This document shows positions 12,201 through 54,968 of a DNA stretch of 64,000 bases, piece by piece. Below the pieces are notes generated by a model. That model had not been told where the DNA came from and ran no database searches. It saw only the letters and a program-made list of their open reading frames with translations. Source of the stretch: Motacilla alba alba. Taxonomy: Eukaryota > Chordata > Aves > Passeriformes > Motacillidae. The DNA is taken from contig NC_052018.1 of assembly GCF_015832195.1 (NCBI RefSeq), forward strand, positions 53,443,666 through 53,507,665, read 5' to 3'. Both the position numbers and the translations under genes were made by a program. Every line of letters begins with the position of its first letter. Position 1 is the stretch's first letter.

Positions 12201-15200
12201 TTTTAATCTAATTTCAAAGAAATTAGGGTAGGTATTTTTTCTTATTAATTTTGAAGTGGTGTAGGCAGAAATGGGTCACTAGTTAATTCTGAACATTTAA
12301 ACAGAGGTCTTTTTTTCAGAGTAAGGAGACAGATTGATTACTCTCTGCTTAGGGAGAAGAAGATGTTGTCTTTTCAAAACTCCCAAATCAGCTCCCATTT
12401 AAGTATCAGGTAAGCAGCCAGAAGCCATTTACCAACAATAGTTTTAGTACCGTGTGCTGTAATAGAGCTTTTTTTGGATTTCATATATCCATAGTTTTCA
12501 GTTTAAATCCCTCAAAATACTGTAGGCTTTCCTTTGGGGAAAAAATTTAGCACTCTCTGTGCAAAAGAGACACAAAACTCCCCTATTTGGCACTCAGTAT
12601 AAAAGACTTCCTTACTGAAACCAGGTAGAAGAAACAGATCTGTACATGCCTTGTGCCTGAAAATCATGCTATTATGCACAGATGACAGTATACACAGTAT
12701 CACTGCAGTATCACACTCAAAATACTCGTTCCTTGACCTGACACAGAAAAATCCAGAAGTTGAACAAAAGCCTACAGTGGTAGGCAGTGGTACTTCTTTT
12801 TTTTTTTTTTTTTTTCATTAGAAAAGAAATAAGCACAGGTGCAAAGAAAGGCATCCATAAGAACACTGCTTAAATTAAAACCAAGAATTAATTTATAAGA
12901 ATTTATTTGAAGAGCAGCAATTGACTTTCTCCAAGTTACTCACAGGCAATGGATGATGGTCCGGCCCTCCCCTTCTTCACATTCCTCTTGCCATTTTTCA
13001 ACCTGGAGAATTAACTTCAAGAAGGATCTTTTGGAAGCTGGTACATCTCTATGAGAAGCCCATCCCAAATACTGGAATTGCTGCACCATCAGATAGCCCT
13101 CTTGTGGCTGAGGGAAATCAAAGAGTTTTAGGTCAAAATGGTACCTTTACATCTTGGTTTAGAAAACCAAAGTATAAAACTAACATGAAACCTAGGTGTT
13201 TATACTCAGGAGATTCTAACGTGTGTACATTGCACAGTAGGGCCTCCAGGAATTTCTACCACCTTAGCTCAAGGAAAATGTCAGAAAAGGTAAAAAAGGA
13301 AACTATATTGAAGACCACATCACAGTTTATTGATCACCTATCCTGAATTCTAAATGAACAAATACCCTAGATTCCATAGATTCTATGTGCTAAGGTTGCT
13401 TAGCACCACTAATCAATTTAAAACATCACTATTAAATTCTTAGACTCGCAGAAATAGAGAGGGATGCATTTGGCTCCTATTCATGAACTGACCCCATTGT
13501 AAATGAACAATGAGTAATACTGGTGCACAAACATGACTACTGTCCTTGAAGTCTTCCTTTTGTGCCAGACTATGATAATTATCACAGCCTTGCTGCCAGT
13601 CTCTGAGCCTTCCACATGCTAGATGTGACACAGGGAGAGCTTTGAATAGAATTTGACTGTCACAAGAAAGGCCTCAATAACAGGAAGGAAGAATAAATAC
13701 TCTATCTACTTTCTTGTAGCTGAAGATGACAAGTAGGTATGTGGATTTTAGAAAAGTAACAACAGAGCAGTGAGATTTTTAAATGCAAGGCTTATGAGTA
13801 AAAGGACATAGGAGACAAAGAGAAGAGTAGAAAATCAAAGCATCATAAAAAATTAAGAAATGGAAAAAAATAAAATCAGAAAAAAAAGAGGAAGTCTCAA
13901 AATACAAGAAAAAAGCACTATGGCGTAGTATTTGCCAGTGTGCCCACACCTTAGTTTCCTGTAGTTTCCAAAAAGAACTGAAAATGTTTTTTGTAATTCT
14001 GAATACAAGCAAAAAAAAAAAAAAAAATTGAGTGAAATACTAGCCACATGAAAACTGATCTTTGCCCTCTGAAAAATGAAAATGTGACCAAAATAAAAGA
14101 AAACAAAAATAAAGCAAAACACATGAAAGATCTTTGTGTACACTGTAATTAATTTTCCCCACTTAGCTTTCAAGATTAATGAGAGTTAAACATATACTCA
14201 AGATACACTAGAAATTGTGATAAGTTCAGTATTGGATGGATGGTAAAAAGCAGTCATGGTAAGTAAAATAGGGATTGCTGGCTAATTGTACATAGACTGG
14301 TGTCACAAGCATCTGTAACTCTTTGTGGTGGGCAATATAAATAGGCAATTCATAGAGGTAAGCTAAAGAGGAAATGCTGTATGGCAAGCGGGGTTTAAGA
14401 AGATGCTGCAAGAGTGTGGAACACTATGGGACAGTAAAAAGATAAGATGGTCTAAGGTATGAAAGAGCTGACAAGAATGCAAGACTGGCACTGCTATTGA
14501 AATTGAGAAAAAGATGGTAACTGTAGGTTGAGGCACAATGGTGGCAGAACCCATTAGAGGCAGAGGAATTTTCAAGGTTTTATCACACCCTGCTTTGCAG
14601 GGCACCACAGTCTGTCTTTCCTGTTGTGGCTTTCACATCTTAGGCTGAGAAGGTGCTGGTTGTAAAACCAGCCTCAGTGTTTCTGTTTGTGATTCACCAC
14701 AGAAAACATCTTACCAAAGCTACGAACTAAATACCTGTCAACACACATTCATTACAGGGATATTTCTTTTACTGTACACCAAACAAACAGAATACAGAAT
14801 ACTTCTCACATATCAGGGATGAATGCCTCAGAATAACATCCATTCACCTTAAAGCTCTCTCTGCTTATTGTAGAAAAGTACTGCAAAAAAGTACTGCAGC
14901 TGTAGAAAAGTACTAGAAATTAGTATTAGATAATGATGCTTGACTGAGTCTTTTCTGGGTAATGTCTTATGAACATTAGTACTTTACTATTATTCAAAAT
15001 TAAAAAGCAGAAGAGCCTAAAGAGTGTGAAAAATGACATATTTTTCTGTCACACATTGTTAGAATAATCCTTACTCTTGTTAGATTGCATATCCTGAAAA
15101 TTCTGTTTATGACGTCGCAGTCCATTGAACACGACATGCATTCCACTTGGATGGGGCCGTACCGCAGTATCCCTTCCTCGGGCCAGTATTGTGGGCAACC

Positions 15201-18200
15201 CTGTGCCAGAGCAAAACAGCCATAGTTAAATGGTAAATTACAACTTGAGCATTGCCTTATTCCCCTGCAGACATCTCACCTAACCTTTGCTGAGCAACTA
15301 GTGTTGATTTGTTGCTGTAGAGCAGAGAAGAATTGTAAAATCACTGCACTGCTCTACATTTTCATCATGTAGTAAATCCAGAGTGATTAAAGCATGTGAC
15401 AGTACATGGAAAACTCGAGCTTCAAACTAACCTGTGCTAAGTCGACTTCATTTAACATCACAAGAGAAGTACAGCCATAGTCATATACTAATCTCCAGAA
15501 ATCTTTCACAGTGTTTGGTAAAGGATGTTGTGTGACGATAAAAGCTGCTGGTTGCCTGTAGCTCTGTAAAGGCAAACAATTTTGTTAGTATCGGTATGGG
15601 AAGTACTTAAATTTTACTGAAATAGAACAAAATGTAAAAATGGAACAAAGGTGTGACATCAGTTACTTCATATATCACTGAGGATGTAAAAGTTAAAAAC
15701 ATATTATCATCTCCAATAAGAACAAAGAGGTTACTCTGCTCAGGTCTGCCTTCTTCCTGGTTACAGAACAAGCCCTGTTTTTACACTCAGATATGCTCCA
15801 GGCACTGAAGATGTTCTTTGTGGCTCTGTTGAGTTGAGGCTCAGGCACTCTGCTCTAGGCGTTATGTCCAGGAGCCAAGCAGGGAACCTTCACCCAATGA
15901 TGCAGAGAGGGGTGCAGAGGTCTCAGAAGATCACCCTCTCCACAGTAGGTTTTATGTGAACTCTGTGACTGAACTGGGGACTAAGCTCAATCTCAAAGTC
16001 TCTTTCACAGTGCACAGCCACAGAAACACCCACAGAACTGACTTTAGGGACAAACTGGAACCCATTTCCAGCAGAAAGCATAAGTTCAACAGCAAAATCC
16101 TATTTCCTGCCATGATTGCAGGTTCCATTTTCTGTATGCTGTGTTATATACAACTGCAAATAGGGACTCCCAGCCTTGCACAGTAACTGAGATGCAACTA
16201 ACAGCGGAGGGGCTACTTTCCTGCTACAGATGTATTATGAGCAGCAAGCAGAAGACGAGAGATCAGAAGTCTTTTGCAGGCAATTTGTAACCATCCATGG
16301 AAAAGTAAATTAACCCGGAGAAAGATCTGGTAGGGCAGATAAACCACTTTTGCTATGGAAGCTTGCTTATTTGAAGATTGATCCAAGGGATCGTTACGTG
16401 CAATATATCGACATACCTTCCAATAACTTGTTGTTAATGTCTTTAGCATCAGTACTTGCTTGATGAGAGATTAAGCAGGCTGCTGATTTTTTTAAAATAG
16501 ATTTTTGTTACCTCTTCTAATGCAGAAAGGATGTTGGGGTAGTAGCAGCTCATGTCCTACTTCCTAGAACTGCCCAGGGACAACTTAGGGACAAAAAATT
16601 TTTATTCTTCCCCTGTACTTTTAAGAAATAAAGCAAGTCCTAGCTGATGCTTTTCTAACCCCCTTCCCCATAATTTATCGTGTTTCTCAAGAGAAAGATA
16701 AGGGGTAAGTTCCTCTTTCTGTTTTGTTATTGAAACTCCCTTTTTCTTGTCCAGGAGTAGTTCCTCTTCTGTGAATAAATCAGTCTTAAAAGAAATGGCC
16801 AGAAGAGAAAAGGCAAAAAAACCCCAAACTTGTGTTACCCAAAATATTAGCCTTTTACTTATAACCTTGTTATATGCTTTCATTGTAATATAATACCTTT
16901 TATTTCTGCTGTTGTTTTTCCTTTTATTACTACCATTTCTGCCTTTTCTAACTTGCCTGTGATTGCCAATCCATTAATATATTGCTTGGTTCGTGTTCTA
17001 CCTGCTGTTGCACACTCAAGAGTCCTCCTGCCTCCCACAGCCTGTGTTACTTTTCTTTCACCCCAAACCACACTCCTCAATGCAGCTCTGTTGGTTGGTT
17101 CACAGCACATCAATTTTATCCAGGTGCTTCATGCCATTTTAACTGCAATTCTAAACAACTTTTGCTACCAGAATTCTGTTCACTGCTCTAATTCATCTGT
17201 TCAGCCCTCAGTGACACCCTAATACATTGGTCTTAGACACACTACTCCTCTATTTTTTTGACACAATAAGCTGATTGTGAGATTAGGGGCTGCATTTTGC
17301 TATCAGTTTGTTTTCTGCACTAGCTCGGGCAGAACTCAAGGATGACTACACCAATCAGTGTTGATGATTTCTGCTGCTATTTGCCATTTTATTTCAGCAT
17401 CTCTCCTTGGCATGGCAGTTTCTGATAGCATTTCATTTTTGAAGAAGGGGAGATGCTCCTGGAAATCAGGCCACTTATTTAAGCATTTACTGTAAAAGTG
17501 GCTTTAGGGGCCTAACTTTGGAAATGCTAATGGGAGGCACAGGAAGGTGTCTGGCAGCACATGAACTGCTTTATTGATCAGACATATATAAGCAGGTTCA
17601 ACTCCATTTTTCCCATTAATTCACCTTTTCCCCTGACAGTACTTCTGTTACTCAGACTTCAACTTTAAAGAGCTGCAACTCAAAACATAAACAACAAACT
17701 CCCCAATCCTATACTCTATACCCAAACATGCCAAGAAAAATATTTTTTCTTCCTCTGTTGTTCCTGCCTCAGTATACAAAGACTTTTTTTATGAAATAGT
17801 GATAGTAGCCTCATGTTCAGAGAGATAACATTTACTTCCTAACAAACAGCAGATTTTTGAGAATCTGCTGAGATTTGAGATTTGGAGGTCTGGACACTAG
17901 AGCTTTATATAATGCTGTTAAAAAGGTGAGATTTCCAGAGGGTCCCACAAGGATGCCAAAGACTAAAGATAACTAACCTTCTGAACAAAAACACAAGCTG
18001 GTGGGGCTTCTTACCTCCTCTCCACCACCCCCCCCCCCCCCCCCCCCCCCCTTCTTCATTAGGACTGCTTTACTGGGCACTGCAGCAACAGAATTACCCT
18101 TTCTTAAACCAGCAAGTGCTCTCTCTCACATTACAGAGCTTTCCATGGCACGCTATGCAGACAAAGAAGGTAGTCTCTTACATCCATAAGAGCAGCATTG

Positions 18201-33200: not shown

Positions 33201-36200
33201 TGAGCACTTCACAAGCACAGGATCAGATTTCAAAGTGATCTTGATTATTTGGGAGACAGTGTGAAAATCAACAAGGTGAATTGAATGGTGAATGCACAAT
33301 TTCCAATAGTGTTGGAAAGGGAAGTCAAATATACAACTACAAAATGGAGTGATGGACGGGAAAATGATAACTGTGATTTTAACAGGTAACTCAATGCAAG
33401 TCAGCAACATGAACACAATAAAAAGGAGAAAATACAGTTCAGTTAACAGAAACAGTGAAAGTGGGCCATGGGGGTACCTATTCCACTCAGCTCAGCTTTA
33501 AGACTTCTTCCAAGAATACTACCTGATTTGGGGCACTGCAATTTAAAATTCAACCTATGAGTTGGGAAGTTGGAAAGCTTTCACAGGAAAATAATGACAA
33601 CAAATTTAGAAAACGTCACTGTCACAGACATATTTTATGAAAATCCTTTTGCCAGGATTTTCTTCTCCTGAGAAGCTGAGTAGCCTCAGGAAAGAAATGT
33701 AAACAATAACTATCTGCTGCTGTGGAATGCAACAGGCGCATCCTTGATTGGCCCATGTTAGGTGTTTCTACTTAATAACCAATCAAGGATGCAGCTGGCT
33801 CAGACTCTCTGGGCAGTCACTAGACTTTGTTATTCATTCCATTCTATTCTTGTCCAGCCTTCTGATGAATCCTTTCTCTCTATTCTTTTAGTATTGTTTT
33901 AATATAGCATTTTTAATATATATCATAATATAATAAATTAGCCTTCTGAAACATGGAGTCAAGATTCTCGTCTCTTCCCTCGTCCTGGGACCCCGGCAAA
34001 TCTCACAACACGTCACCCACGAGATGATGAGTTAAAGAGCTGGGTTAAACTCAACTAAAAGAGTTGAGGACATGAGCCTTTCAATGTGAAAAAGTCAGTT
34101 CTGAAAGGAGAGAAATGTGCCACTTTTCCATATTTTCTATGAGTCTCTCAAAAGGAAATGGCTCAATCCACAGCAATGAAAATTTAGTCTAGGTTAGCCT
34201 AGTTAGGAAAAACTAGGGGTGAATATTAATAATACATAGTAGTAACACCCAGTTAGTAGTAATTGATACTCAGAAAATTGACCTTTGGGTCCCAAATATT
34301 ACTAATACGAAACAGAATTTATTCTTACTAAGGAGAACTGAGGCACTGGAACATTCCACTGCAAGAGCAAAATTCTGTTTGCTAAAATTCTGTTTGCTAC
34401 AAATTTTTAAAACATAATGAGACAATTTCCAGAAAGAATTTGTACTATATGTATAATATCCCTCCTCAAAACAGAGAAGGGATTTCCTTGCCCCCAAGTC
34501 CCTTTAGGATTTACTTCTAGGAATCTAATTTTCCATATGTCTATATTCACATCTACTTTCTGATTTTTGTCTTTTATCCTAAAATAACTGCAGCAACTGA
34601 CTGAAACTCAATACTGCACATTGTGTTTATCCAACCAAGAACTTGGGTACAAATTTTATCTTTATATTTAAAAAAAAGAAAAACATCTCTAAAGCCTGCA
34701 TTCAGTGTTAGATGCAGCATAGACATATTCAGCCAGTCTATTTCAATGTGTATTCTTCTTTTTAAAGTAAGTAAAAAGCTGAAAAATTTACTAGTTAATG
34801 CCAATTGAATTATGTAATTAATATAGGCATACAGAAGTATTTGTTCAGAACATGCAAAGAAAGTTTTTTCCTCTTAGATATTCTGAAAGTTTTTCTGTTT
34901 TCTGTTTCTCTTTTCATTCTTGTGACTAAGAAAATTGAACTTTGGGAGCCAAAAAATGTTAATATGGACCTAAATTATTTTAAAGATCTCTTAATAGAGC
35001 TCTAGTTTCACATGTCAGTTTATTGGAACTCAGTTCCAAAAGCTCTGGGGAGAAAAATTTTAGTGTTTTCCATTTACATATTTCCTCATTTACTCTTCAA
35101 TTAGCAGTGACTAGGAATAACTTCTTAATGAGGACATAAAATAATTTTTATTCTAAAATTGTTGTCAGTCGAATTCTGAATTGATGAACTGAGTGTAAAA
35201 TTATTTTCTGGCAACAGCATAGTTTTACATAAAACAAGCTGTTTCAACGTTCAACCATGCAAGGAGACAGAACTCATGCAGGGATGGATAATGAAGGACT
35301 AGGGTCCTCACCTAACACAGCTGTCGGCACAAGTGGATCATTGGGCACTGCAGGAAAACAAAGCCCATGAAGAAACACATTACCCTTAATTTGTGTATTT
35401 TTAAGAACAAAAACAATATACTTCAGAGTATGACCAAGTGATAACTAAACTCCATTAATTTTGTTAAAAGAGGAAACCAGAAAGAATACAGTTCCAGAAA
35501 GCATCCTGAATAAAAGAAGTATGAAAGGCAGTGATTTCAGACTTTAGAAATGTAATGATAAGAGCCAAGAGATCCTTACTGAAATGAAATAAAAAGACAT
35601 TACATGCAATTTAGTTTTTGAAAGGGTTCCTCCTTCACTATTGTTTTTTTTCACTTCAGAATAAAGGTTCACTTTCATAGAACTCACTTCTTTCCTTTTA
35701 AAACCATCCCCTCATGTAATACTTGAATAGCTAATCTCAAAATAAAATGGTATTTCTATAAAGTTTTCAAGGCAATTAAAAAAATTATATACATTTTTAG
35801 TGTTAATAGCTTTTTTAATACTCAGTACCAAAGAGATTGCTCATAATGAGTAAAGGAAAATCACAGATACACAGATGCAGATGTCTGAATAAAATTCATA
35901 GAATTTTATCTTTTATTATTACAACTAGAACCATGCAGAGATAAATGCACTGTTTTGGACAGAAATGGCAGAATCCAGGATTTGTATTGTTCCAGTCTGG
36001 AACAAAAAACTATAACGTCTGTAACAGAATTAAGCTCCAGTTCTCAAACATTCTGCCTGAAAGTTTGTCACATAGCAGGAAACCCTGAAAGATTGGAAGA
36101 CTTGTCTCAGCAGAGACAATTGTCAGAAGAAACAAATCCTCCAATACACAAAAAATCACATTCCTAGGATGCTAGAAACCAGTCATGTCCAATTTCTTTG

Positions 36201-39200
36201 CCAACTAGCCAGGGCAGCTGTGGTGACAGGAGCTCATGGGCTCTTGGCATCACATCAGTCCAGCTGAAAGGCTGCCTGAGTGCCTGGCAGCTCCAGCTCA
36301 CTAACAGCCATGTAAATTCCTGATAAATTCTTAGCCTGGGATCCACCATCACAGTCCATATCCAACTGTCCGTGCAATCCTGCCTCCACAAATTTCAATG
36401 CCAATAAGGCATCCAACTTCGGAGACTTTTCAAACTGTTCCAGCCAAAACTGTAGAAAAACCATCCGGCTGATACTCCCATTAATAATTGGTTATTATTA
36501 ATGACACTTAAAATGTTAGCACTTGGCAGTTTGGTAAGCTTCAACAAACCAACCAATAAACCCTCCTCCAAAACCCATTTCCCTTACAACAACCAGGAAA
36601 GAGCTTAAGAGCCTTAATGGATGTATTTTGTTCAAGCATGGTAAGGAGTGTGGGAGATGAGAAGAGACACGGAGTTTCATTCCCAAAAGGTGGCAATTCA
36701 GAAGCAGCTCAGATCTATTCAAAGCTGAACTACAAGTCCATGGAGCTGTGAGAAGCTCAGGTTCCTACCAGCTCCATGGCAAAATGGCACGTCTTTGTAA
36801 TTTATACACAAGTCTTGAAATGTTCAGTCTGCAAGTGGAGTACCTTGCTTTTGGCAAGGTATAGTGCAGATGTTGGGAGGCAAGAGTGCTTAACACTGGC
36901 AGCTATAACCCTTAACAGTCAGAAACCCAAACTTTTTCCAAACCAGACAGCTGGCATGTCTACAAAAAATGAATACAAATATAGAACACATTTGCAGATA
37001 TATTAACAAGCTTGTTCCTAAACTCCACAAACCGCAATGAAAATTGTCAATGTTTCCTTCTGTTGTAATGTCCTTACTGCCAAAAAAATAGAAAATAATT
37101 TGGACCTCATATTATTATTCATTACAGACATGGTGTTCTGCAGTAATATTTAACATGCTGGCATTAAATAGTCTCATGAGGGAAAACTCAATTTCAAGCT
37201 TTAACTGAGGTATTCTGGAAGTATGATACTTTCCGTAAAATAAATATCACTGCATAGTGAAAGCACATGCAAATATTTAATTAAATAACTTGCCACATTC
37301 CAGCAAGGACAACATATGAACATCCCTACTCAACCTTTTGCTTTACCATCATTCCTGGAAAACCTGGAGCGTAAAACAATTTTCCTTAAAAAGCAGAATT
37401 GTTTTCTGTGTTTCTGTATTCACTTACACTCTGGAGTATCTACCACTGTGTACTTACATCTGGGGCTGAAGTTATGTGAGTCCATAAATGTGATTGACAG
37501 GGGATCCTCTGCATGCAGAGTGCTCTGGTCGGCGTAACTCCTGTCCATGGCATTCACCATGTGGGTCATCTCCTGACGGGTGGTTCCCATGGCATCCTTG
37601 CGCTTCTTTGCAAGTTTGCTGCCCAGCCAAAAAAAAAAAAAGTAAACCACCTTAATATTTGATGAATGTTGGTGTCTACGGTAATCATTCTCTATAATCC
37701 TGAGTGCCTGATAAGTTTGATAAACTTATTTCCCTGTGGGCAATTTTTTCAGCGTGTGATAAAACCGTGCACCCTGCTATGCAACAGTCATGGTCTTGTG
37801 TTTTCTGTACACACACAAATGCTGTAATGGAAGTGCTTACTTCTGTACTCCGGCAATAATTTTTTTTCCTGTGGAGTAATTATACTAATATACACAAATT
37901 AGAGAATATAATTACATTTTAACTGAAATGACAAATAAGAAGCATCTGTGCATGCAGTTTTATCAACCATCTCCATTTAAATATCTATTTTGATTTTATA
38001 AATGGATAATTCATTCCCCTTGCTTGTGTTGTTGGGAAAAAGAGTCATGTAACCTTCTAAATTACTTTGTTAGTCAAAAAACCTATGAAGTAACAAAAGA
38101 AGCATAATCATTCAAAACATATTTATATTAAATATTTATATGACATTTTATGTAAAAGGTTATATTGCCTATTCAATATACAAGAAACGAGAGAATACCA
38201 CACTATAGTCCTGGTACTTAACTTTGGTTCTTTGAAAAACAAAACCACTCTTATCATTCTACCCTTTCATGCAGTTTGGGAACATCGCAATTTGACATTA
38301 ACAGTCTTACACTCTGACTGCATCACAGTTAAAGACCAACTTAATCTGTACAACTAAGCCCCTCAAATTAACAGCCAGTGCCCATAAAGTGCACACTTCA
38401 GAAATATCACTCAATTCTTCCCTTTTGAGAAAGAAGTGGAAGTAATTTTCACTGTCTCCAGGAGTCAAATGGAAGCAGACAATATATTTTAATTATAACT
38501 TCAAGCATATATCTCAAGTAGCAAGAAGTATGCATGAGGTGGGCCTTGGTTCTGCAGAAACCTTTAACATGCATCAAACTGTTCTGAAATCTCCCTCTTT
38601 TCAGCTGAAGCCATGACTATAATACATAGCCAACCTGCTTAGTTGGATAAATGTGACACCACATGAGAGAGACACAATCATCACTGAATATACTGAGTTC
38701 TTGAAAATGTATGTTTAAAACACAGCTTATCTTCACAAGCTTTTTCTGCATAGAATACCATCAAATGCTCCGGTAATCATTTAGACAGTGTTTGTCTTAC
38801 ATTTCTCTTTACTAAAAGGATGGCCAACTCTAAATATTCTATGCACATTCTAAGAGCAGACAAGGATAATATTAGATACTTATTATATATTATAATATTA
38901 GATGTTAGGAAGAAAGTCTTTACTATCAAGAAGGTGGGACATTGACAGTAGTTGTTCAGAGAGGCTGTGGACCTCCCCTCTCCAGACGTGTTCAAGGCTA
39001 GGTGGGACGGGGCTCTGAGAAATCTGATCTGGTGGAAGGTTTGGAACTAGATGATCTTTAGGGCTCCTTCCAAAACAAACTATTCTGGGATTCTGTGAAG
39101 AATATTAGAGTAAATTATCCATTCATTTACTTGTTGAATCCTGGGAAAATTCACCAGAAAGGACCTACACTGTTCTGTAGGGCAAGAAGTACTTCATACA

Positions 39201-42200
39201 TAATTAAGAAAATGTTACAGGGCTATTTCTTAAGTTAACAGTCTTGGTTCATGATGAGGTACCACGGTGTAGAATATGGATGGACAAAGCCCTCCTGTGA
39301 ATAGTAGATTCTTCCACCAATCAGACTCATGTCCTTATTTTGTCAGATTCCCCCCCCCTTTTACTCCATCTATAGATGGAATAGTTGGAAAAGTACTACT
39401 CAGTAACATTCTTACTACAAAAATCCCAAAGGTGGTCTCTAAACCGATCAGTTTTTTAAATCAAACTATTGTTTGATGGGGGTCTGTATCAGTCATTACA
39501 CGAAAAATAAAAAAAATCTGTTGGATGTCCCCCCTACAATGCTTTATTTTATACATTTACTCCACACATTCCTTTCAACTTAAGAGAAGCTAGTTTAAAT
39601 GATGCTCTGGTTGAACAAATGAAGACCATAAAAACTTCCAAGAGTGAAACTGCTTGAGCTTTATAACTGCTTTCCAATACTATCAAAGGCTTCACAAAAC
39701 TAGCATTTCTAGTTCAAAGTAGTTTTTTAAGTTTCAAAGCCTTTCAAACAGTCTCTATACACTGAAGATCACCTTTTTCTAACATCACCTCAGAAACGGA
39801 ACAAAAAGACTATTACATCTCATCTCTCGATGATATTAAGCTTTTCTTTGAAGCATCACTTTGCAACAAAACCTGCTAGCCACACTAAATAAATCAACAG
39901 CTATTAAGGCTTTCACGTTATTACCTTATTACAGTAGCTACTTTCTAATTCTTATGCTCTGCTTCAACGCCTAAAAAGGCCTATTGTGTTGTAGCACTGC
40001 AACCCTACGCTGCTGGGAAATGGGAGGACAGCTTTATTGTTCAACAGCTCCGGGGTCCCTTGCGGTTTGACAACTTCTTTTTCCTTTCCTTTTTTTGCTT
40101 CCCTCACTCAGCTATAGGCACATGCAATCTGTGCTTTGTGATAGTTAGGCAAATCATTAGGTTAAATAACTTGAGGCTGACAGAAAGCGTAAATTATTCT
40201 CATTATCTGCTAAAGGATTCAGTTGGATGAATCTGCTCAGGTGGGTGTTACAGTGGTTGGAGGGGAAAGGTGCTCCATCATTGGATGAAACTGGGTGGTC
40301 AATTATCTTGAGTAGAAGCAATTGCTATTTAACAAGAAAATTTTAATTAGTCACAATAAATCAGAGAATGACAGCTAAACCAGCCTTTTTAAAATTTTTA
40401 AGTTTGTTTAAAGAAGCAAACTAATTCTGCTTAAAAATGTGGAAGAGCATCATTATTGGACACCACCAGTTCATCAAAGCACTTGAGTGCATCTTCAATG
40501 CCTCTGAAGTCGAGCACTTTATGCATTTATTTAAAATGAAGGATGCGTGTAACTGCTTGCTCAATCACAGACAAATTTGTCAAGAGTCCTCACAAAAACT
40601 CATTTGGTCAGCAAGTATCAAAAAAGCCAGTTTTGCTTCAATGAAGCAAATCTTTTATACAAACCAATGCCATAAAATAAGATCCAACTTTAAGATGTGT
40701 ATGCAAAGCACCTCAAACTCAAAAGAGGCAGACCATAAACTATTTATAAAAGTTTGGCATCTGCCTACAACCTACATAGGAAAATGTATACAAGATCACT
40801 CCTGAACTAATACTCTAAGAACATACAGTTTGTGATTTACTGGCACAGTTCACTAACCAGGAAATGGGAAAAGATATTTTTTCCTTAGTGTGATGTATTG
40901 CTGTGAATCATAATGCAAATTAAATTATGATCATAATAAACTCAAATGATAGTCATGGAAAAAAAAAACTGTAGCAAAAAGCTAAGTCTCAATATACAGT
41001 TAGAAATACAATATCCCTTTAAAAAAAAGAAACAACAGGGTAAGAATAACAGGAACGATACACGCAATTTTTCAAGCCTGAGAACAAGGAAAGGTAACTA
41101 TCAGTAAAACTTTGGAAAAATTATAGAGGCTGTTTTTCTTTTTTAAAAAGGGATACTGCATCTTTAAAACACACAAAATAGTAAGTCACCCATATTCTAC
41201 TTACAGATAGTAGGAGTAAGAATAGTAGCTCCTCCTGGCAAGCAAATCACAGACAGTGGAAAAAGAGAAGCAATGGTGAATGAAAAGCGTGACTCTGTCA
41301 CATCCAATAAAGCAGAGAAATGTGCGTTTAAAAAAAAAGTTGAAAAAATTCATGTTTCTTTGGTTAGCATTTCAACTTGCTCATGCGCAAACTAGCCTTA
41401 CTTTGCCATGCAATTAAAAACAAAACAAAACAAAAATTAAAAAAACCCTAGCGTATAAAAATGATTTGTTTTTTAGAAGGATCACTTGAGAAAATTACAT
41501 GCTGAGATTTCACTTATTGCCAAAAATTTTGAAAATTAAATGGATTGTGTAATTTCAACATGCAGTTCAGCATAATATAATGATTACTGCCTAGATGTCA
41601 TGACAAATGAACAGCTGTGTACAAGTCTTGTGCAGCAGATATGCTTTTTACTTTTCAGTCACAAAAAATAAGGTTCCATTAATAAATACATTTAATCAGA
41701 AAACAATTTCTTGTCATTCAGTTTAACATATTTATCAGTACACAGTTGTAGACATATATGTTTGTATGCGCACTATGCGTAGCTATATGAGTACACACAT
41801 TTTAAAGAAAACTGAACATTTCCAGCAGACATGTGTGTACTGGCATATCCACCACACATTTCCTCAATGCAAACATATGCTTTCTATTTGAAAATCTTAC
41901 GATTGGAAATGCTGATGTAGTCATGCTAAGCATTAAAAACATGGAAGGTAAACAAATGGAAGGAAATGAAGGACATTTGGAAATAGTCCAACAATGATTT
42001 CGAAAATAAAAATAGCATTGCTTGTTAAAGATGCAGTATCCCTTTTCTTAGCTGGTTTGATTACTCCAGTAGAAGTCTTTAAAAGCTGTTAAGAGCTTTA
42101 TTCAGGAAAACTTCAAACCAATTTGTACAAAATGATCAGGCAAAGCCTAAAACATCTCAAGCTCATAAACAAAACTGCTCAGTACTCCATTTTTCAATAA

Positions 42201-44649
42201 AATGTAATGCTGCATTTAATCAGTGATTTGAGATACTGGTGGCTGTGCATACGACTTAATAAACTAATAAAAATGCAGAAACCATTGTTTTATTGACTTT
42301 TCCATCTAATAAACTGTGGTCAATTCGGGTACCAAAAGGGATACTACATAATGGATCACTGAATAGGTACACTACAGAGGATGATTCAGACGGATCGGAT
42401 TTCAGTCCCACCACAACTAAGTGAAGTGTGTTTTTGTATGTGTGAATGTGTCAGAGTTTTTACAGCTGTTTCTGCCTTCATTATATGAATTGCCCTGACT
42501 CACTAGATGGATTGATTTAACTCAGGAACACAGTTTTTCTGTGTTTTTTGTAAGAGACCTTGACTAAAGCTGGTATAAAAAATGTGCCCATTTTCACTAA
42601 AGGCAGAGGGGGAGAAGAATGGCACACCTACAACATGTTCAATAGACAACCAATTAAACCATCATGATGGAAAATTGCCAAACATTAAAGATTCATTAAG
42701 AAGGTTAATTTCTCACCTATTTAGAATACAAAATAGTACAGGAATTTAGGCTATAGAATGATGATAATTTCTAAAAGGATACTGCCTTCACAGGTTCTGA
42801 GGAGGGAAAGAGGGGAAAAGGGAAATTTTAAAATATCACTTCACAGATATAATTAACTCACTTTGGTCAAACAATAGTGAAAATTTGAGCCTAAAAGGAC
42901 TCAGAATGGAAGAGGCAAAAACTATAGGAAAAATGTACACATGGATTTGTTTGTTTGTTATTTGCAAAACTAGTCAATCACATCTGGAAGTGACTGACAC
43001 TCTGTAGTGCAGGATGGTCTCTCTCTCACACACAAACACACGTGAACACACAGAGAATTTTCTATTAAACGTAAGGGGACCACTGTAACACTCACTAAGA
43101 TGATACTTGCCAGTACATACCATGCTACAAAGCTACAATATAACGATTTCCTCCTAAAAGCTGAAAAACAATTTCACTTTTGTTTTTCAAAAGTCGTGTA
43201 AATAAAGAAAACTGGCTGACTGTATGTTTTTTTTTGTACATGATGAGTTGGACCTTTTGCATATGTGTAAATTCTCAGCCACAAAGGTAAACAACAGAGA
43301 AAAGTAAAAGCACTTTTGGGAAAAATCACATATGTAGCTAACTAACACAGAACACTATAAGCATACCTAATGTTTCTAATGCAGACGTTTCTTCTCCAAG
43401 TTATATATCTCCAGGGATAATTGTAAAAAGGCAATAAATTAAAAAAATCTAATGCAAACCAACAATGATAACATATAGAATGATCTTAATCGATAAAAAT
43501 AATAGTAAGCTGCATTTCAGAGGAATATACGCAACAATCACAAAAATACTTTTTATTATAACTTCTGCAAAAGGCAAGGGAACGCAACGCACACACCATG
43601 GGAAGGCAAAGGGCTCGTTCTATGCAAGAGAAATCAGCTTGTGCCGTGTGAAGGGGAACCACCAGGGAGGACGTGCACAGAGAGAGAGGAATTAGTTTCT
43701 ATACTATAACTACGGAATTATAGGGACACATTATGGACTTCTCTGCCAGGTTAAAAGAGTTGCAACTACTGGTAAGGCTAGGCTTTGAAACACTGACCAA
43801 GCAATAGGATAGCACAAGTTGCTACAGGTAGGAGGGCTGGGATGCAGGGATAGCATTGAACAATGCCAGAAGATGGCGATATTGCTTACTGTCTAAGAAA
43901 GCACTGAAAAAAATTTAAATTCACTTAAATTAATACACTTAAACAATTTCATGCACTAAGAACTCACTAGATAATTTTACAGTGATGCGCTATGACTTTT
44001 AAGAAAAAACTCCAGGTTTAAAAGAGCATAAATAGAGGTATAAAATTACATTATTTTGCAAGTTGGGTAACATGCAAATACAAATAACTCATTAGAGCCA
44101 CACAGAGAAAATAATATTCATTAAGTGGTTAAAACATGAAAAGTGCAACAAGTTATTATTTTTTCTTTGCTTTAAAAAATAAAAAAGGCACCATAAATTT
44201 CAATTCCACCCACTTTAACAATCTGTACATTCTTCTATCTCCAACTTAAAAATCCTTGGAAACTAATAGCATGAGAAAATGTATAGTTATCGGAATCTTA
44301 AATATAAAGAAATTCTATCTTTAAAGACATCCTAAGAATCACAGCAAAACCAAAAGAAAACACAAGGAACTAATCCAAAAATTGACCTAAAGGACCTACC
44401 AGTCCCAAAGCTTTTTCTTTTTCTAAAGACCTCTAAAAAACATCCTTTCAAAATTGTTTGATAGAGAGGAGGAAAAATAAAAGATCAATCAGCAGAGATC
44501 ATTTTCTTACCTTTTTTTGACGATCAATATGACAACAAGGAGAAGTAGGATGAATACCAGAATTCCAGCACTTATTCCTGCTATTTTCACCACTCGATCT
44601 GTTTGTTTGGCGGGATCCGGAATCACCTCAGGTTCTTCTGTTGCTGCTG
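9163..44649 (-). CDS. PTPRK: PTPRK, 3' half of the coding region (transmembrane helix to stop), split over 17 constitutive and 3 cassette exons
   Basis: Receptor protein tyrosine phosphatase kappa is a single-pass plasma-membrane protein of the R2B family. Its MAM-Ig-FN3 ectodomain binds homophilically at cell contacts, and its D1 domain dephosphorylates junctional proteins. The joined constitutive exons give 708 codons plus stop with every exon phase matching. Order: transmembrane helix (about residues 22-43), basic stop-transfer KK, juxtamembrane region (about 46-160), D1 (about 161-415, catalytic C351), D2 (about 430-705). The end [11 protein letters not shown] and the segment [10 protein letters not shown] fit PTPRK as I remember it, and not the NSG, SSF or GLESR ends of PTPRM, PTPRT and PTPRU. 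The ectodomain exons (MAM, Ig, FN3) lie upstream, outside the window. No frameshift or premature stop was found in the constitutive path. Confidence 0.96.
9217..11566 (-). other. PTPRK intron w19-w20
   Basis: 2.35 kb. Holds a CR1 remnant and a pyrimidine-rich stretch on the transcript (9736-9772). Nothing else recognised. Confidence 0.85.
10970..11030 (+). mobile_element. CR1 LINE 3'-end remnant
   Basis: GTTGGATTCAATGATCTTAAGGGTCTCTTCCAACCTAAATGATTTTAT (split here only by reading) follows the CR1 3' terminus, plus orientation. Only about 60 bp are recognisable. Confidence 0.8.
11567..11702 (-). CDS. PTPRK: PTPRK exon w19: D2 P-loop (136 nt)
   Basis: The exon encodes residues 647-691, [16 protein letters not shown] to PNMVETP, completing HCLNGGGRSG with R651. 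It enters in phase 2 and leaves in phase 0. The donor is [27 protein letters not shown] is PTPRK-like. The acceptor is ACATGCAG. The exon is clearly richer in GC than its flanks. Confidence 0.95.
11757..11807. repeat. Local tandem duplication
   Basis: CATCCATTTCAGTTCTT occurs twice, about 26 bp apart, with shared TCAAAACA flanks, just upstream of w19 in the transcript. Other small duplications: AAAATTCTGTTTGCT at 34370-34402, TGTAGAAAAGTACT at 14869-14915. Confidence 0.75.
12797..12815. repeat. Homopolymer T19
   Basis: Uninterrupted T run in the w18-w19 intron, A-rich on the transcript. Similar runs: A17 at 14011-14027, T14 at 53372-53385 and T14 at 61077-61090. Confidence 0.9.
12944..13107 (-). 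CDS. PTPRK: PTPRK exon w18: D2 region with degenerate WPD loop (164 nt)
   Basis: The exon encodes residues 592-645, [19 protein letters not shown] to GEGRTIIHC. The WPD loop equivalent reads GWASHRDVP, so the catalytic aspartate is missing (S609), whereas C645 is kept. This is the known state of R2B D2 domains, regarded as non-catalytic and regulatory. It enters in phase 0 and leaves in phase 2 (CT). The donor is GTGAGT. Confidence 0.95.
13108..15074 (-). other. PTPRK intron w17-w18
   Basis: 1.97 kb AT-rich; A17 run and a small duplication at 14869-14915. No exon seen. Confidence 0.85.
15075..15200 (-). CDS. PTPRK: PTPRK exon w17: D2 CPQYWPEEG segment (126 nt)
   Basis: The exon encodes residues 550-591, [15 protein letters not shown] to FRICNLTR, the counterpart of w11. 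Phase is 0 on both sides. The donor GTAAGG follows AGA and the acceptor is CTGGCACAG. Confidence 0.95.
15432..15563 (-). CDS. PTPRK: PTPRK exon w16: D2 core (132 nt)
   Basis: The exon encodes residues 506-549, [17 protein letters not shown] to NEVDLAQ, the D2 counterpart of w9-w10, including [13 protein letters not shown]. Phase is 0 on both sides. The donor is GTTAGT. Only 231 nt separate it from w17, the shortest intron in the window. Confidence 0.95.
15564..18181 (-). other. PTPRK intron w15-w16
   Basis: 2.6 kb; the C24/G24 homopolymer is the only notable element. Confidence 0.85.
18028..18051 (-). repeat. Homopolymer C24 (G24 in the PTPRK transcript)
   Basis: Twenty-four uninterrupted C on the plus strand, in the w15-w16 intron about 130 nt past the w15 donor. 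The pre-mRNA carries a G24 run able to form G-quadruplex structures. Length is prone to assembly error. Confidence 0.9.
18182..18355 (-). CDS. PTPRK: PTPRK exon w15: start of D2 (174 nt)
   Basis: The exon encodes residues 448-505, [17 protein letters not shown] to NYINAALMD, with KNRF replacing KNRY of D1. Phase is 0 on both sides. The acceptor is TTTTCCTTAG and the donor GTAAGA. A run of 24 G on the transcript begins about 130 nt downstream of the donor. Confidence 0.95.
18356..18925 (-). other. PTPRK intron w14-w15
   Basis: 570 nt; nothing recognised. Confidence 0.85.
18926..19075 (-). CDS. PTPRK: PTPRK exon w14: D1 C-terminal helices and D1-D2 linker (150 nt)
   Basis: The exon encodes residues 398-447, [17 protein letters not shown] to [10 protein letters not shown]. 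The first Gln belongs to the Q-loop TEEQY that spans the w13-w14 junction. Phase is 0 on both sides. The donor CAG|GTATTC lacks G at +5. Confidence 0.95.
19076..20903 (-). other. PTPRK intron w13-w14
   Basis: 1.83 kb; nothing recognised. Its donor (GTACAG) is weak. Confidence 0.85.
20904..21039 (-). CDS. PTPRK: PTPRK exon w13: D1 P-loop arginine (136 nt)
   Basis: The exon encodes residues 353-397, [15 protein letters not shown] to MVQTE. With w12 it completes [10 protein letters not shown], with C351 and R357 in the HC-X5-R signature, so D1 is predicted to be active. The length of 136 nt equals that of w19, its D2 counterpart. The donor GAG|GTACAG is weak (C at +4, A at +5). Confidence 0.95.
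21040..22145 (-). other. PTPRK intron w12-w13
   Basis: 1.1 kb splitting the D1 catalytic motif after C351; nothing else recognised. Confidence 0.85.
22146..22300 (-). CDS. PTPRK: PTPRK exon w12: D1 WPD loop and catalytic cysteine (155 nt)
   Basis: The exon encodes residues 301-351, [14 protein letters not shown] to IVVHC. It contains the WPDHGVP loop with the general acid D319, and ends just after the nucleophile C351. It leaves in phase 2 (AG of S352). The acceptor is TTTTACAG and the donor GTGTGT. It matches w18 of D2 in its place relative to the catalytic motif, reflecting the ancient domain duplication. Confidence 0.95.
22301..23040 (-). other. PTPRK intron w11-w12
   Basis: 740 nt; nothing recognised. 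Confidence 0.85.
23041..23157 (-). CDS. PTPRK: PTPRK exon w11: D1 [10 protein letters not shown] (117 nt)
   Basis: The exon encodes residues 262-300, [19 protein letters not shown] to VVRTFTLGR, in phase 0 on both sides. The donor is GTGAGC. The penultimate residue is Gly (GGA); I remember Glu (ERRGYNEI) in mammalian PTPRK at this place, a single A-to-G difference. Confidence 0.94.
23158..23852 (-). other. PTPRK intron w10-w11
   Basis: 695 nt; nothing recognised. Confidence 0.85.
23853..23950 (-). CDS. PTPRK: PTPRK exon w10: D1 [11 protein letters not shown] core (98 nt)
   Basis: The exon encodes residues 230-261, [17 protein letters not shown] to LVEVGR, the hydrophobic core helix and strand of D1. 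It enters in phase 1 (GT completes G229) and leaves in phase 0. The donor GTAAGT follows AGA. Confidence 0.95.
23951..25758 (-). other. PTPRK intron w9-w10
   Basis: 1.8 kb; contains the CR1 fragment at 24661-24775. Confidence 0.85.
24661..24775 (-). mobile_element. CR1 LINE 3'-end fragment
   Basis: The plus strand begins CATAGAATCACAGAATTATC and continues AAAGACCTTTAACATCATCAAGTCCAAC, the reverse complement of a CR1 3' end. The distal end fades gradually, so the upper limit is approximate. Confidence 0.8.
25759..25795 (-). CDS. PTPRK: PTPRK exon w9: short D1 exon (37 nt)
   Basis: A 37-nt constitutive exon encodes [12 protein letters not shown] (residues 217-228), the family signature just after DYINANYID. 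It enters in phase 0 and leaves in phase 1. The acceptor is CTGTTTTAG and the donor GTAAGG. Because 37 is not a multiple of three, skipping it would break the frame. Confidence 0.94.
25796..28392 (-). other. PTPRK intron w8-w9
   Basis: 2.6 kb AT-rich; two short dinucleotide tracts, no exon seen. Confidence 0.85.
26396..26421. repeat. (CA)n(TA)n short microsatellite
   Basis: A short compound dinucleotide repeat in the w8-w9 intron. A TA/TG tract of similar kind lies at 27611-27640. Confidence 0.85.
28393..28469 (-). CDS. PTPRK: PTPRK exon w8: D1 DYINANYID core (77 nt)
   Basis: The exon encodes residues 192-216, [12 protein letters not shown] to DYINANYID, the first core motif of D1. It enters in phase 1 and leaves in phase 0. 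The acceptor is TTTTTACAG and the donor GTGAGT. Confidence 0.95.
28470..29282 (-). other. PTPRK intron w7-w8
   Basis: 813 nt; (CAA)n repeat. A 125-codon open frame on the minus strand here has no recognisable domain. Confidence 0.85.
29117..29136. repeat. (CAA)n trinucleotide repeat
   Basis: About six CAA units in the w7-w8 intron. Confidence 0.85.
29283..29370 (-). CDS. PTPRK: PTPRK exon w7: D1 substrate-recognition loop (88 nt)
   Basis: The exon encodes residues 162-190, [15 protein letters not shown] to YGNIIA. The KNRYGN motif (residues 182-187) is the phosphotyrosine-recognition loop of classical PTPs. It enters in phase 0 and leaves in phase 1. The donor is GTGAGT. Between it and w8 lie 813 nt of intron, in which I see a (CAA)n repeat but no exon. 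Confidence 0.95.
29371..31114 (-). other. PTPRK intron w6-w7
   Basis: 1.74 kb; nothing recognised. Confidence 0.85.
31115..31299 (-). CDS. PTPRK: PTPRK exon w6: juxtamembrane to D1 entry (185 nt)
   Basis: The exon encodes residues 101-161, [11 protein letters not shown] to YGFKEEYE, including the conserved R2B segment [20 protein letters not shown] that leads into D1 (the wedge and helix region). It enters in phase 1 (AT completes Y100) and leaves in phase 0. The acceptor is GAATGCAG and the donor GTGAGA. The three cassettes w2, w4 and w5 all insert upstream of it. Confidence 0.95.
31300..32444 (-). other. PTPRK intron w5-w6
   Basis: 1.1 kb between the 12-nt microexon and w6; nothing else recognised. 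Confidence 0.65.
32445..32456 (-). CDS. PTPRK: PTPRK microexon w5: 12-nt candidate cassette
   Basis: A 12-nt segment (TGCCTATTACTG) is followed by a near-perfect donor, GTAAGTAT, and preceded by AAAG after a pyrimidine-rich stretch containing T7. The phase is 1 on both sides. Joined to w4 and w6 it yields TAVL-VPIT-DENHSA; I recall a closely similar VPIN-D stretch in long PTPRK isoforms. Joined to w3 directly it yields LPIT-DENH. The acceptor is weak (A at -3, purine-rich last 12 nt), as is usual for microexons. Confidence rests on phase, donor strength and the remembered isoform. Confidence 0.62.
33620..34010 (+). mobile_element. Solo LTR of an endogenous retrovirus (391 bp, ERVK-like)
   Basis: The element begins TGTCACAGAC and ends CTCACAACA (TG...CA), with a perfect 6-bp target-site duplication CGTCAC at 33614-33619 and 34011-34016. 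It holds CCAAT boxes in an inverted repeat, and AATAAA at 33932-33937. No internal retroviral sequence or second LTR is present, so it is a recombination product. A 6-bp duplication is typical of class II (ERVK) elements. It resembles an LTR family I remember as abundant in songbirds. It lies antisense to PTPRK, between microexon w5 and cassette w4. Confidence 0.88.
35256..35280 (-). promoter_or_regulatory. Two UGCAUG (RBFOX) motifs downstream of cassette exon w4
   Basis: TGCATG occurs on the transcript strand at 35275-35280 and 35256-35261, 31 and 50 nt past the donor of w4. RBFOX proteins bound downstream of an alternative exon are known to favour inclusion. Confidence 0.7.
35312..35347 (-). 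CDS. PTPRK: PTPRK cassette exon w4: 36-nt alternative juxtamembrane exon
   Basis: The acceptor is TTTCCTGCAG, the donor GTGAGG, with phase 1 on both sides, so inclusion keeps the frame. It replaces the split tyrosine codon between w3 and w6 with [12 protein letters not shown] followed by D before ENHSATAE (if joined directly to w6). I recall this segment from annotated PTPRK isoforms. Two UGCAUG motifs lie 31-55 nt past the donor, the classic position for RBFOX-promoted inclusion. Confidence 0.9.
   Translation of the reverse strand, partial: CPMIHLCRQLC
35348..37457 (-). other. PTPRK intron w3-w4
   Basis: 2.1 kb. A relatively GC-rich block at 36164-36470 carries two overlapping open minus-strand frames of 69 and 75 codons that I cannot assign. 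Confidence 0.8.
37458..37618 (-). CDS. PTPRK: PTPRK exon w3: juxtamembrane segment (161 nt)
   Basis: The exon encodes residues 47-99, from [11 protein letters not shown] to HNFSPR. It enters in phase 2 (C completes the serine) and leaves in phase 1 (T). The donor is GTAAGT. The polypyrimidine tract is a run of 13 T on the transcript followed by GGCTGGGCAG. The [10 protein letters not shown] motif inside it distinguishes PTPRK from PTPRM and PTPRT. In known PTPRK the region between membrane and D1 is the target of phosphorylation and proteolytic processing; no specific site can be assigned here. Confidence 0.95.
38893..39098 (+). mobile_element. CR1 LINE 3'-end fragment
   Basis: It starts at GATGTTAGGAAGAAAGTC, passes GTTCAGAGAGGCTGTGGA and GACGTGTTCAAGGC and ends at GATGATCTTTAGGGCTCCTTCC...ATTCTGTGA, the characteristic CR1 3' UTR order. 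Orientation is plus, opposite to PTPRK; it lies in the w2-w3 intron. Confidence 0.88.
41146..41167 (-). repeat. Downstream arm of a 22-nt perfect inverted repeat around exon w2
   Basis: The plus strand carries a 22-mer with core GGGATACTGCATC whose exact reverse complement lies at 42025-42046. Similarity ends at the arm edges, so this is not an obvious pair of transposon copies. In the transcript this arm lies 37 nt below the 3' edge of exon w2. Confidence 0.9.
41205..41234 (-). CDS. PTPRK: PTPRK cassette exon w2: 30-nt tyrosine-rich juxtamembrane microexon
   Basis: A 30-nt exon lies between acceptor TTGCTTGCCAG and donor GTAAGTAG, in phase 2 on both sides. Including it changes KK-S-KLAKK into [18 protein letters not shown]; skipping it keeps the frame. 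The insert carries five tyrosines directly under the membrane. From memory, the paralogue PTPRT has a nearly identical YSYSYYL segment at the same place, which argues that this is a real, ancient cassette. It sits in the 6.9-kb intron between the transmembrane exon and w3, close to an unusual inverted repeat. Confidence 0.88.
41407..41412 (-). promoter_or_regulatory. UGCAUG (RBFOX) motif upstream of cassette exon w2
   Basis: TGCATG on the transcript strand, about 173 nt upstream of the 30-nt exon. A second copy lies at 41559-41564. Upstream RBFOX sites usually favour skipping. Confidence 0.5.
42025..42046 (-). repeat. Upstream arm of the 22-nt inverted repeat around exon w2
   Basis: Exact reverse complement of 41146-41167. 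It lies about 790 nt upstream of exon w2 in the transcript; pairing of the two arms would place the exon in a loop of 857 nt. Confidence 0.9.
42334..42349 (-). repeat. Third, one-mismatch copy of the inverted-repeat core
   Basis: The plus strand reads AAAAGGGATACTACAT, differing from the first 16 bases of 41146-41167 at one position. In RNA the difference becomes a G-U wobble when paired with 42025-42046, giving an alternative 16-bp stem entirely inside the intron upstream of w2. Confidence 0.8.
44511..44649 (-). CDS. PTPRK: PTPRK exon w1: membrane-proximal stalk and transmembrane helix (139 nt)
   Basis: The exon encodes the last ectodomain residues ([12 protein letters not shown]), a helix of about 22 hydrophobic residues starting [11 protein letters not shown], and the basic KK stop-transfer end. 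It enters in phase 1 (the first two bases, CA, complete a codon) and leaves in phase 2 (AG). The donor is GTAAGA. The acceptor region reads TTAGCAGCAGCA, so three AGs stand in tandem; I chose the first, and the others would remove one or two alanines. The helix sequence agrees with PTPRK from memory. Confidence 0.95.

Positions 44650-45314: not shown

Positions 45315-45397
<83 letters not shown>
45299..45397. repeat. Compound TG/TA/CA microsatellite
   Basis: (TG)n followed by about 75 bp of nearly pure TA with one TG interruption, then (CA)n. The two flanks are complementary, so the whole can fold into one hairpin. Open frames across it in several frames are artefacts. Confidence 0.95.

Positions 45398-54896: not shown

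Positions 54897-54968
<72 letters not shown>

What the first reader, a model, noticed from the sequence alone, without database searches (positions are those of the whole stretch)
41146..42046. Perfect 22-nt inverted repeat flanks the 30-nt exon and could loop it out
Seen: 41146-41167 and 42025-42046 are exact reverse complements, 857 nt apart, with no similarity beyond the arms. Exon w2 lies between, 37 nt from one arm. An exact 22-nt match this close is very unlikely by chance. Inference: long-range RNA pairing would loop out the exon and favour joining w1 to w3, like known conserved complementary intronic pairs that control alternative exons.
Basis: partly seen in the sequence, partly recalled or inferred. 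Interest (0 to 1): 0.8.

Follow-up and report, generated by a model that had tools for sequence, protein, structure and literature searches.

The report
Competing RNA helices around PTPRK microexon
In a probably avian copy of the PTPRK gene, a tiny ancient exon sits between short matching sequences that could pair in two mutually exclusive ways, one holding the exon in a loop and one not, but whether the cell uses this is untested.

Summary
41146-41167 and 42025-42046 are perfect reverse complements. The next longest complex inverted repeat within 3 kb is 14 nt, and 60 simulations reached at most 17. The gene is PTPRK, minus strand. The 30-nt exon (41234-41205) is real and old: 85 of 120 listed vertebrate relatives carry it, from elephant shark to gibbon, so the arms are not the two ends of one transposon.

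The arms (A1 upstream, B1 downstream of the exon) have two relatives nearby: A2 (41000-41021), which forms a 35-bp hairpin with B1, and B3 (42334-42349, 15 of 16 bases). In transcript order B3-A1-exon-B1-A2 they allow two exclusive states: A1:B1 (exon looped out), or B3:A1 plus B1:A2. Ensemble folds favour A1:B1 if A2 or B3 is missing, and in most settings the local pairs if all are present; one parameter set reverses this in one context.

Best reading: an attenuator-like RNA switch setting exon inclusion. The B1-A2 hairpin is the strong part; B3-A1 is not unusually stable. Conservation of the arms and any splicing effect could not be tested. Neutral local copying is about as likely.

The parts
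44511..44649 (-). exon w1: transmembrane exon of PTPRK, ends ...IVKK + AG before GTAAG; its start is uncertain because of tandem AGs
43367..43408 (-). second optional microexon 'x' (42 nt, [13 protein letters not shown]) between w1 and w2
   Evidence: translation matches turtle P0027 and frog P0064; coordinates
42772..42787 (-). B4: weak copy (13 of 16); may be chance
42334..42349 (-). B3: 16-nt copy complementary to A1 (15 of 16; the one difference gives G-U on the gene strand)
42025..42046 (-). A1: upstream arm of the perfect 22-nt pair
41205..41234 (-). exon w2, 30-nt microexon (adds ten residues, turning KKS-KLAKK into [18 protein letters not shown])
41146..41167 (-). B1: downstream arm, 37 nt after the end of w2
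41000..41021 (-). A2: imperfect copy of A1 (17 of 22); pairs with B1 with 2 mismatches counting G-U as paired
41000..41167 (-). B1-A2 hairpin: 35 bp (sides 41167-41130 and 41038-41000), -41.5 kcal/mol, z -5.3, 0 of 200 shuffles as stable
37458..37618 (-). exon w3: juxtamembrane exon ([13 protein letters not shown]...)

Best explanation
The intron between the transmembrane and juxtamembrane exons of PTPRK carries a four-segment RNA switch, B3-A1-[w2]-B1-A2, laid out like a bacterial attenuator. If A1 pairs with B1, the 30-nt microexon w2 is held in an 857-nt loop and tends to be skipped. If A1 is held by B3 and B1 by A2, w2 lies between two local hairpins, outside the loop, and can be included. 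Because the segments are transcribed in that order, the predicted sequence is B3:A1 first, then A1:B1 once B1 emerges, then B3:A1 plus B1:A2 once A2 emerges. Transcription speed or an RNA-binding protein could therefore set how much w2 is included. Shown: the sequences, their complementarity and the exon. Predicted by folding: the two states. Inferred: any effect on splicing, and the timing.
For: The perfect 22-nt pair is far beyond chance. Both arms have extra partners close by; 0 of 400 and 3 of 400 control 22-mers had neighbours as good. B1-A2 hairpin: 35 bp, z -5.3, 0 of 200 shuffles; the gene strand folds better than the other strand (-41.5, z -5.3 against -32.3, z -2.98). The A1..B1 stretch with its arms paired: z -3.94, 0 of 20 shuffles. 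Ensemble folds (Turner, 37 C): B3 and A1 present, B3:A1 13.3 expected pairs; up to B1 without A2, A1:B1 21.3; A1, B1, A2 without B3, A1:B1 21.1; all four, B3:A1 13.2 and B1:A2 16.3 against A1:B1 1.4. The all-four result recurs in three further contexts, at 41 C, and in the minimum-energy fold of the 6892-nt intron stretch, which has 15 B3:A1 and 17 B1:A2 pairs. w2 is optional: 85 of the 120 listed proteins include it and 35 skip it.
Against: No comparative DNA was available, so nothing shows that the segments are conserved or covary. The B3-A1 stretch is not unusually stable (z -1.74; 4 of 100 shuffles as stable). In the minimum-energy fold of 42360-40995, B3 pairs with the w2 region and A1 pairs elsewhere, although the ensemble still gives B3:A1 13.5 pairs. 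With the Andronescu parameters the 1.4-kb fold flips to A1:B1 (18.1 pairs) plus B3:A2 (9.9); the 2-kb fold flips back. Predicted openness of the w2 splice sites hardly differs and, if anything, is higher in the loop-out state (5' site 0.40 against 0.37; 3' site 0.52 against 0.48). The hairpin's rank in the window scan rests on an exact placement that I added; no regular-grid window over it appears among the 30 rows printed. Of 5 transitions separating A2 and B3 (16-nt core) from their mates, 4 give G-U on the gene strand, too few to count. No RNA-probing or splicing data for these segments were found.
Confidence: 0.37

Rival explanations
1. The copies are neutral debris: a short stretch was copied locally in inverted orientation (for example by template switching during replication), recently for A1/B1 and earlier for A2 and B3, with no role in splicing.
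For: Copies are short, differ in divergence (22/22, 17/22, 15/16) and lie in one 1.4-kb tract. Of 20 flank comparisons, 18 are at or below the 95% background, and the interiors of A2..B1 and A1..B3 are unrelated. The B3-A1 stretch is not unusually stable.
Against: Four copies in the order needed for a two-state switch, a 35-bp hairpin starting 37 nt after an optional exon, and neighbours matched by 0 of 400 and 3 of 400 controls would be a coincidence.
Confidence: 0.38
2. Simple loop-out: A1:B1 alone represses w2, and the other copies are incidental.
For: Between 36-nt stretches A1:B1 is the strongest duplex (-37.9 kcal/mol; the other five pairs -25.3 to -17.7; these stretches cut the B1-A2 stem short). 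It forms whenever B3 or A2 is left out, and with all four under one parameter set and context. Validated human intronic structures in a published table span 51-9431 nt at -15.8 to -35.9 kcal/mol (PMC8052449, table passage).
Against: Ensemble folds with all four segments prefer the local pairs in the other settings tried, and so does the minimum-energy fold of the intron.
Confidence: 0.13
3. The copies are ends of small inverted-repeat transposons: A2..B1 a 168-bp element and A1..B3 a 331-bp element.
For: A2..B1 has long near-symmetric ends, as such elements do. One A-rich stretch at 16.8-17.2 kb aligns to it with gaps above the 99% background (30 against 26), though without its CCC core.
Against: The interiors of the two would-be elements are no more alike than background (11.5 against a median of 12.5). 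I saw no target-site duplication by inspection. The 22-mer has no other match at up to 3 mismatches in 64 kb. Genome-wide copy number could not be tested.
Confidence: 0.12

Closest known systems
Exon loop-outs by long-range intronic pairing, e.g. DST, CASK, PHF20L1 (PMC10790352, passages) and GPR126 (PMC8052449, passages)
   Same: Complementary segments in the introns on both sides of an optional exon, hundreds to thousands of nt apart.
   Different: The PMC8052449 set was found by conservation; here conservation is untested. Here each arm also has a second partner nearby. PTPRK is not named in that paper's main text; its supplements could not be read.
Competing intronic RNA structures in Dscam, ATE1, DNM1 (PMC10790352, passages; the ATE1 paper was not held)
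   Same: One segment can pair with more than one partner, and the choice decides which exon is joined.
   Different: The review lists these for clusters of mutually exclusive exons; here a single microexon would be gated on or off.
Bacterial trp-type attenuator (recalled)
   Same: Four ordered segments with 1:2 and 3:4 against 2:3.
   Different: Would control splicing, not termination; no leader peptide; no trigger known.
Neural microexons controlled by SRRM4 (motif recalled; PMC10214192, passages)
   Same: 30 nt, in frame, UGC close to the 3' splice site of w2; a PTPRK microexon is included in neuroendocrine prostate cancer, which overexpresses SRRM4.
   Different: SRRM4 dependence of this exon was not tested, the passages do not give the exon's sequence, and they report almost 0% inclusion across normal tissues, with only one of its two junctions seen in brain.

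Membership tests
Exon loop-out by long-range intronic pairing | Complementary segments in both introns flanking an optional exon | tested here: met
Exon loop-out by long-range intronic pairing | Pairing conserved or supported by covariation | not testable with these tools
   no vertebrate genomic DNA reachable; the genome search unanswered
Exon loop-out by long-range intronic pairing | Pairing lowers exon inclusion | not testable with these tools
   needs minigene or RNA data
Competing intronic RNA structures | At least one segment has two mutually exclusive partners of comparable stability | tested here: met
   in silico only: B1 with A1 or A2, A1 with B1 or B3; B3-A1 by itself is not unusually stable
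Competing intronic RNA structures | The choice changes splicing | not testable with these tools
   no splicing data
Inverted-repeat transposon (single element spanning 41146-42046) | Interior is transposon sequence, not older host sequence | tested here: not met
   interior holds exon w2, present in 85 of 120 listed vertebrate proteins including elephant shark
Two small inverted-repeat transposons (A2..B1 and A1..B3) | Related interiors, target-site duplication, many genomic copies | tested here: inconclusive
   interiors unrelated, no duplication by inspection, copy number not testable
Microexon (at most 30 nt, as defined in PMC10214192) | At most 30 nt, in frame, alternatively used, conserved | tested here: met
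   length and frame; 85 of 120 listed proteins include, 35 skip
Neural microexon | Included in neurons under SRRM4 | not tested
   only a published PTPRK microexon of unstated sequence

The most novel reading that the evidence does not exclude
A vertebrate pre-mRNA carries an attenuator-like four-segment switch (1:2 plus 3:4 against 2:3) whose middle helix imprisons a microexon. The switch is flipped during transcription as each segment emerges, so that polymerase speed or a duplex-binding protein reads out as the number of tyrosines beside the membrane in PTPRK.
Probability: 0.18. Interest if true: 0.85.

Novelty: new variant of a known kind. Interest (0 to 1): 0.56.

Why it matters
Microexons change receptor tails, and their control is usually explained by proteins alone (general knowledge). 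A compact set of four intronic segments that predicts opposite effects for mutating A1 and for mutating A2 would give a direct test of co-transcriptional RNA switching in a vertebrate gene. If w2 is the PTPRK microexon reported in neuroendocrine prostate cancer, it might also help explain why that exon is nearly silent in normal tissues.

Tried and rejected
Chance match: rejected. One transposon spanning both arms: rejected because the interior exon is old. Known structured RNA: no Rfam match at gathering thresholds. Longer shared flanks: of 20 flank comparisons 18 were at or below the 95% background; the two above are B1/A2 3' flank (17.0, which is the rest of the hairpin stem) and A1/A2 5' flank (16.5, unexplained, about one such expected). 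B4 as a firm member: dropped, because matches to the 16-nt core at up to 3 mismatches are expected about 1.8 times per window. G-U drift: 4 of 5 transitions, too few to count. Published PTPRK RNA structure: one search listed one paper, which I did not open and which is on acetaminophen in hepatocytes; one search found no PTPRK in the main text of the PCCR paper. A search for bistable RNA switches in splicing listed one riboswitch review, not opened. The string YSYSYY was in no paper of the library. The FTD paper PMC12558363 (passages) reports a PTPRK exon in neurons but not which one, so I did not use it. Exact 22-mer in viral and prokaryote contigs: none. 40900-42900 against phage records: none. 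Pfam and PDB searches of the juxtamembrane peptide gave nothing above Pfam cut-offs and no significant PDB match. In one search I dropped the 5 'langdon' rows of 20, because several repeat other parameter sets exactly, so that setting evidently did not load; their all-four rows point the same way as Turner's. One search timed out and was replaced, in which 3193 windows were folded but only the 70 with the largest residuals were shuffled. One search's tally by regular expression failed for most rows; I used only its printed sequences, and for counts.

Full report
What is there. The window carries part of PTPRK on the minus strand: joined minus-strand ORF pieces match the solved PTPRK phosphatase domain best (2c7s, E 2.9e-43). 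The relevant exons, in transcript order, are w1 (44649-44511, transmembrane segment; start uncertain), a 42-nt exon x (43408-43367), w2 (41234-41205, 30 nt) and w3 (37618-37458). Joining w1 to w3 gives ...[18 protein letters not shown]; adding w2 gives ...[20 protein letters not shown]. The 7 bird proteins in the first list have AMGTT as the window does, and the turtle proteins there have AMGNT, so the source is probably a bird (inference).

The exon is old and optional. A protein search gave 2944 matches, of which the best 120 were listed; 85 of those 120 contain w2 (with S or T at one position) and 35 skip it. The 85 range from elephant shark and coelacanth to gibbon. All 7 birds listed skip it, but the database is clustered at 90% identity and one cluster alone holds 4207 members, so this says little about use in birds. 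Exon x occurs in 3 of the 181 proteins fetched over two searches (painted turtle P0027, a frog P0064, an axolotl P0124), each time followed by w2; none joins x directly to w3.

The arms. The perfect 22-nt inverted repeat is confirmed and is not chance. I call the upstream arm A1 and the downstream arm B1 (gene strand). Two more copies exist. A2 (41021-41000) is 17 of 22 identical to A1 and pairs with B1 with two mismatches if G-U is allowed; apart from A1 it is the best such partner in the window by mismatch count. By duplex energy A2 (-24.4) ranks just behind one site at 15145-15200 (-24.6), inside an ORF with PTPRK phosphatase residues. B3 (42349-42334) has 15 of 16 bases of the arm core and is the best partner of A1 after B1 by duplex energy. 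As a control, 400 complex 22-mers from elsewhere in the window were compared with everything within 1.5 kb in both orientations: 0 had a 15-of-16 neighbour and 3 had a 17-of-22 neighbour. B4 (42787-42772) is weaker and may be chance.

The hairpins. B1 and A2 form a 35-bp stem (25 A-U, 7 G-C, 3 G-U; sides 41167-41130 and 41038-41000). It folds at -41.5 kcal/mol against a shuffle mean of -23.75, z -5.3, 0 of 200 shuffles as stable. The opposite strand gives -32.3, z -2.98, 1 of 200 shuffles as stable. In a scan of 3193 windows on both strands, the 70 with the largest residuals were shuffled; the exactly placed hairpin window, which I added to the grid, had z -5.08, and outside the AT microsatellites only windows near 33.7 kb and 2.0 kb were more extreme. 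No regular-grid window over the hairpin is among the 30 rows printed. The hairpin begins 37 nt after the end of w2. The B3-A1 stretch is not remarkable by itself: z -1.74, 4 of 100 shuffles as stable. The A1..B1 stretch has z -3.94, 0 of 20 shuffles as stable, with the arms paired.

Two exclusive states. Order on the transcript: B3, A1, w2, B1, A2. Ensemble folds (Turner parameters, 37 C) give: B3 and A1 transcribed, B3:A1 13.3 expected pairs; with B1 but not A2, A1:B1 21.3; A1, B1 and A2 without B3, A1:B1 21.1; all four, B3:A1 13.2, B1:A2 16.3, A1:B1 1.4. The all-four result recurs in 1451-, 1951- and 2501-nt contexts, at 41 C and for 42360-40995 (B3:A1 13.5, B1:A2 17.5). In the minimum-energy fold of the 6892-nt stretch 44510-37619 there are 15 B3:A1 and 17 B1:A2 pairs. 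Against this: the single minimum-energy structure of 42360-40995 keeps B1:A2 but pairs B3 with the w2 region and A1 elsewhere; and with the Andronescu parameters the 1.4-kb context gives A1:B1 (18.1) with B3:A2 (9.9) nested outside it, while a 2-kb context again gives the local pairs. The two states are therefore close in predicted energy, and the choice is within the error of such calculations.

How it probably works. A1:B1 would put w2 in an 857-nt loop and so favour w1-w3 joining, as described for other loop-outs (PMC10790352 passages; PMC8052449 passages). B3:A1 plus B1:A2 would leave w2 outside that loop. Because segments emerge in order during transcription, the loop-out would be transient before A2 is made, and anything that holds A2 or B3, or slows the polymerase between B1 and A2, would favour skipping. 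Predicted openness of the w2 splice sites barely changes and is slightly higher in the loop-out state (5' site 0.40 against 0.37, 3' site 0.52 against 0.48), so masking of splice sites is not the mechanism suggested. All splicing effects are inference.

What is known. Loop-outs and competing intronic structures are established. PTPRK was not found in the main text of the conserved-pairing catalogue, and a search for PTPRK with RNA secondary structure and splicing listed one paper on another subject; supplements could not be read, so a catalogue entry may exist. A PTPRK microexon with 27% average inclusion in neuroendocrine prostate cancer and almost 0% across the normal tissue panel is published; its two junctions were absent in nearly all normal tissue types except for one junction in brain, and that tumour overexpresses SRRM4 (PMC10214192, passages). 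Its sequence is not in the passages; at 30 nt w2 fits the paper's definition of a microexon, but the identity is my inference.

Limits. No vertebrate genomic DNA could be compared: the genome search tool did not answer in nine tries. Without that, a neutral local inverted duplication is about as likely as a functional switch.

Noticed in passing
43367-43408 (-): A second optional microexon x ([13 protein letters not shown], 42 nt) between w1 and w2; in the 3 of 181 fetched proteins that have it (turtle P0027, frog P0064, axolotl P0124) it is followed by w2.
   Followed up: partly
related proteins P0142-P0180, P0121 and P0123: Salmonids show SHGGFTTKNWSVR, and two other teleosts RWLTASVSASDR or RCLTVSVSALDR, joined directly to w3 without w2, hinting at other alternative exons in this intron in fish.
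   Followed up: no
33623-33840: Strong local RNA fold (z about -6.6) around a 14-nt inverted repeat with a 27-nt gap.
   Followed up: no
2001-2200: Another strong local fold (z about -6 on the plus strand).
   Followed up: no
45315-45388 and 54897-54958: Long (AT)n microsatellites, mutually complementary, 9.5 kb apart, upstream of w1 in transcript order.
   Followed up: no
42360-40995 (-): In one minimum-energy fold B3 pairs with about 41180-41240, the w2 exon and its 5' splice site region, a possible third state.
   Followed up: no
16801-17200 (-): A-rich stretch with a gapped resemblance to the A2..B1 hairpin element (score 30, 99% background 26), without its CCC core.
   Followed up: partly
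41235-41290 (-): The 3' splice site of w2 has UGC and UUGC just before the AG and pyrimidine-rich CUUCUCUUUUUCC upstream, as recalled for SRRM4- and PTBP-controlled microexons.
   Followed up: no
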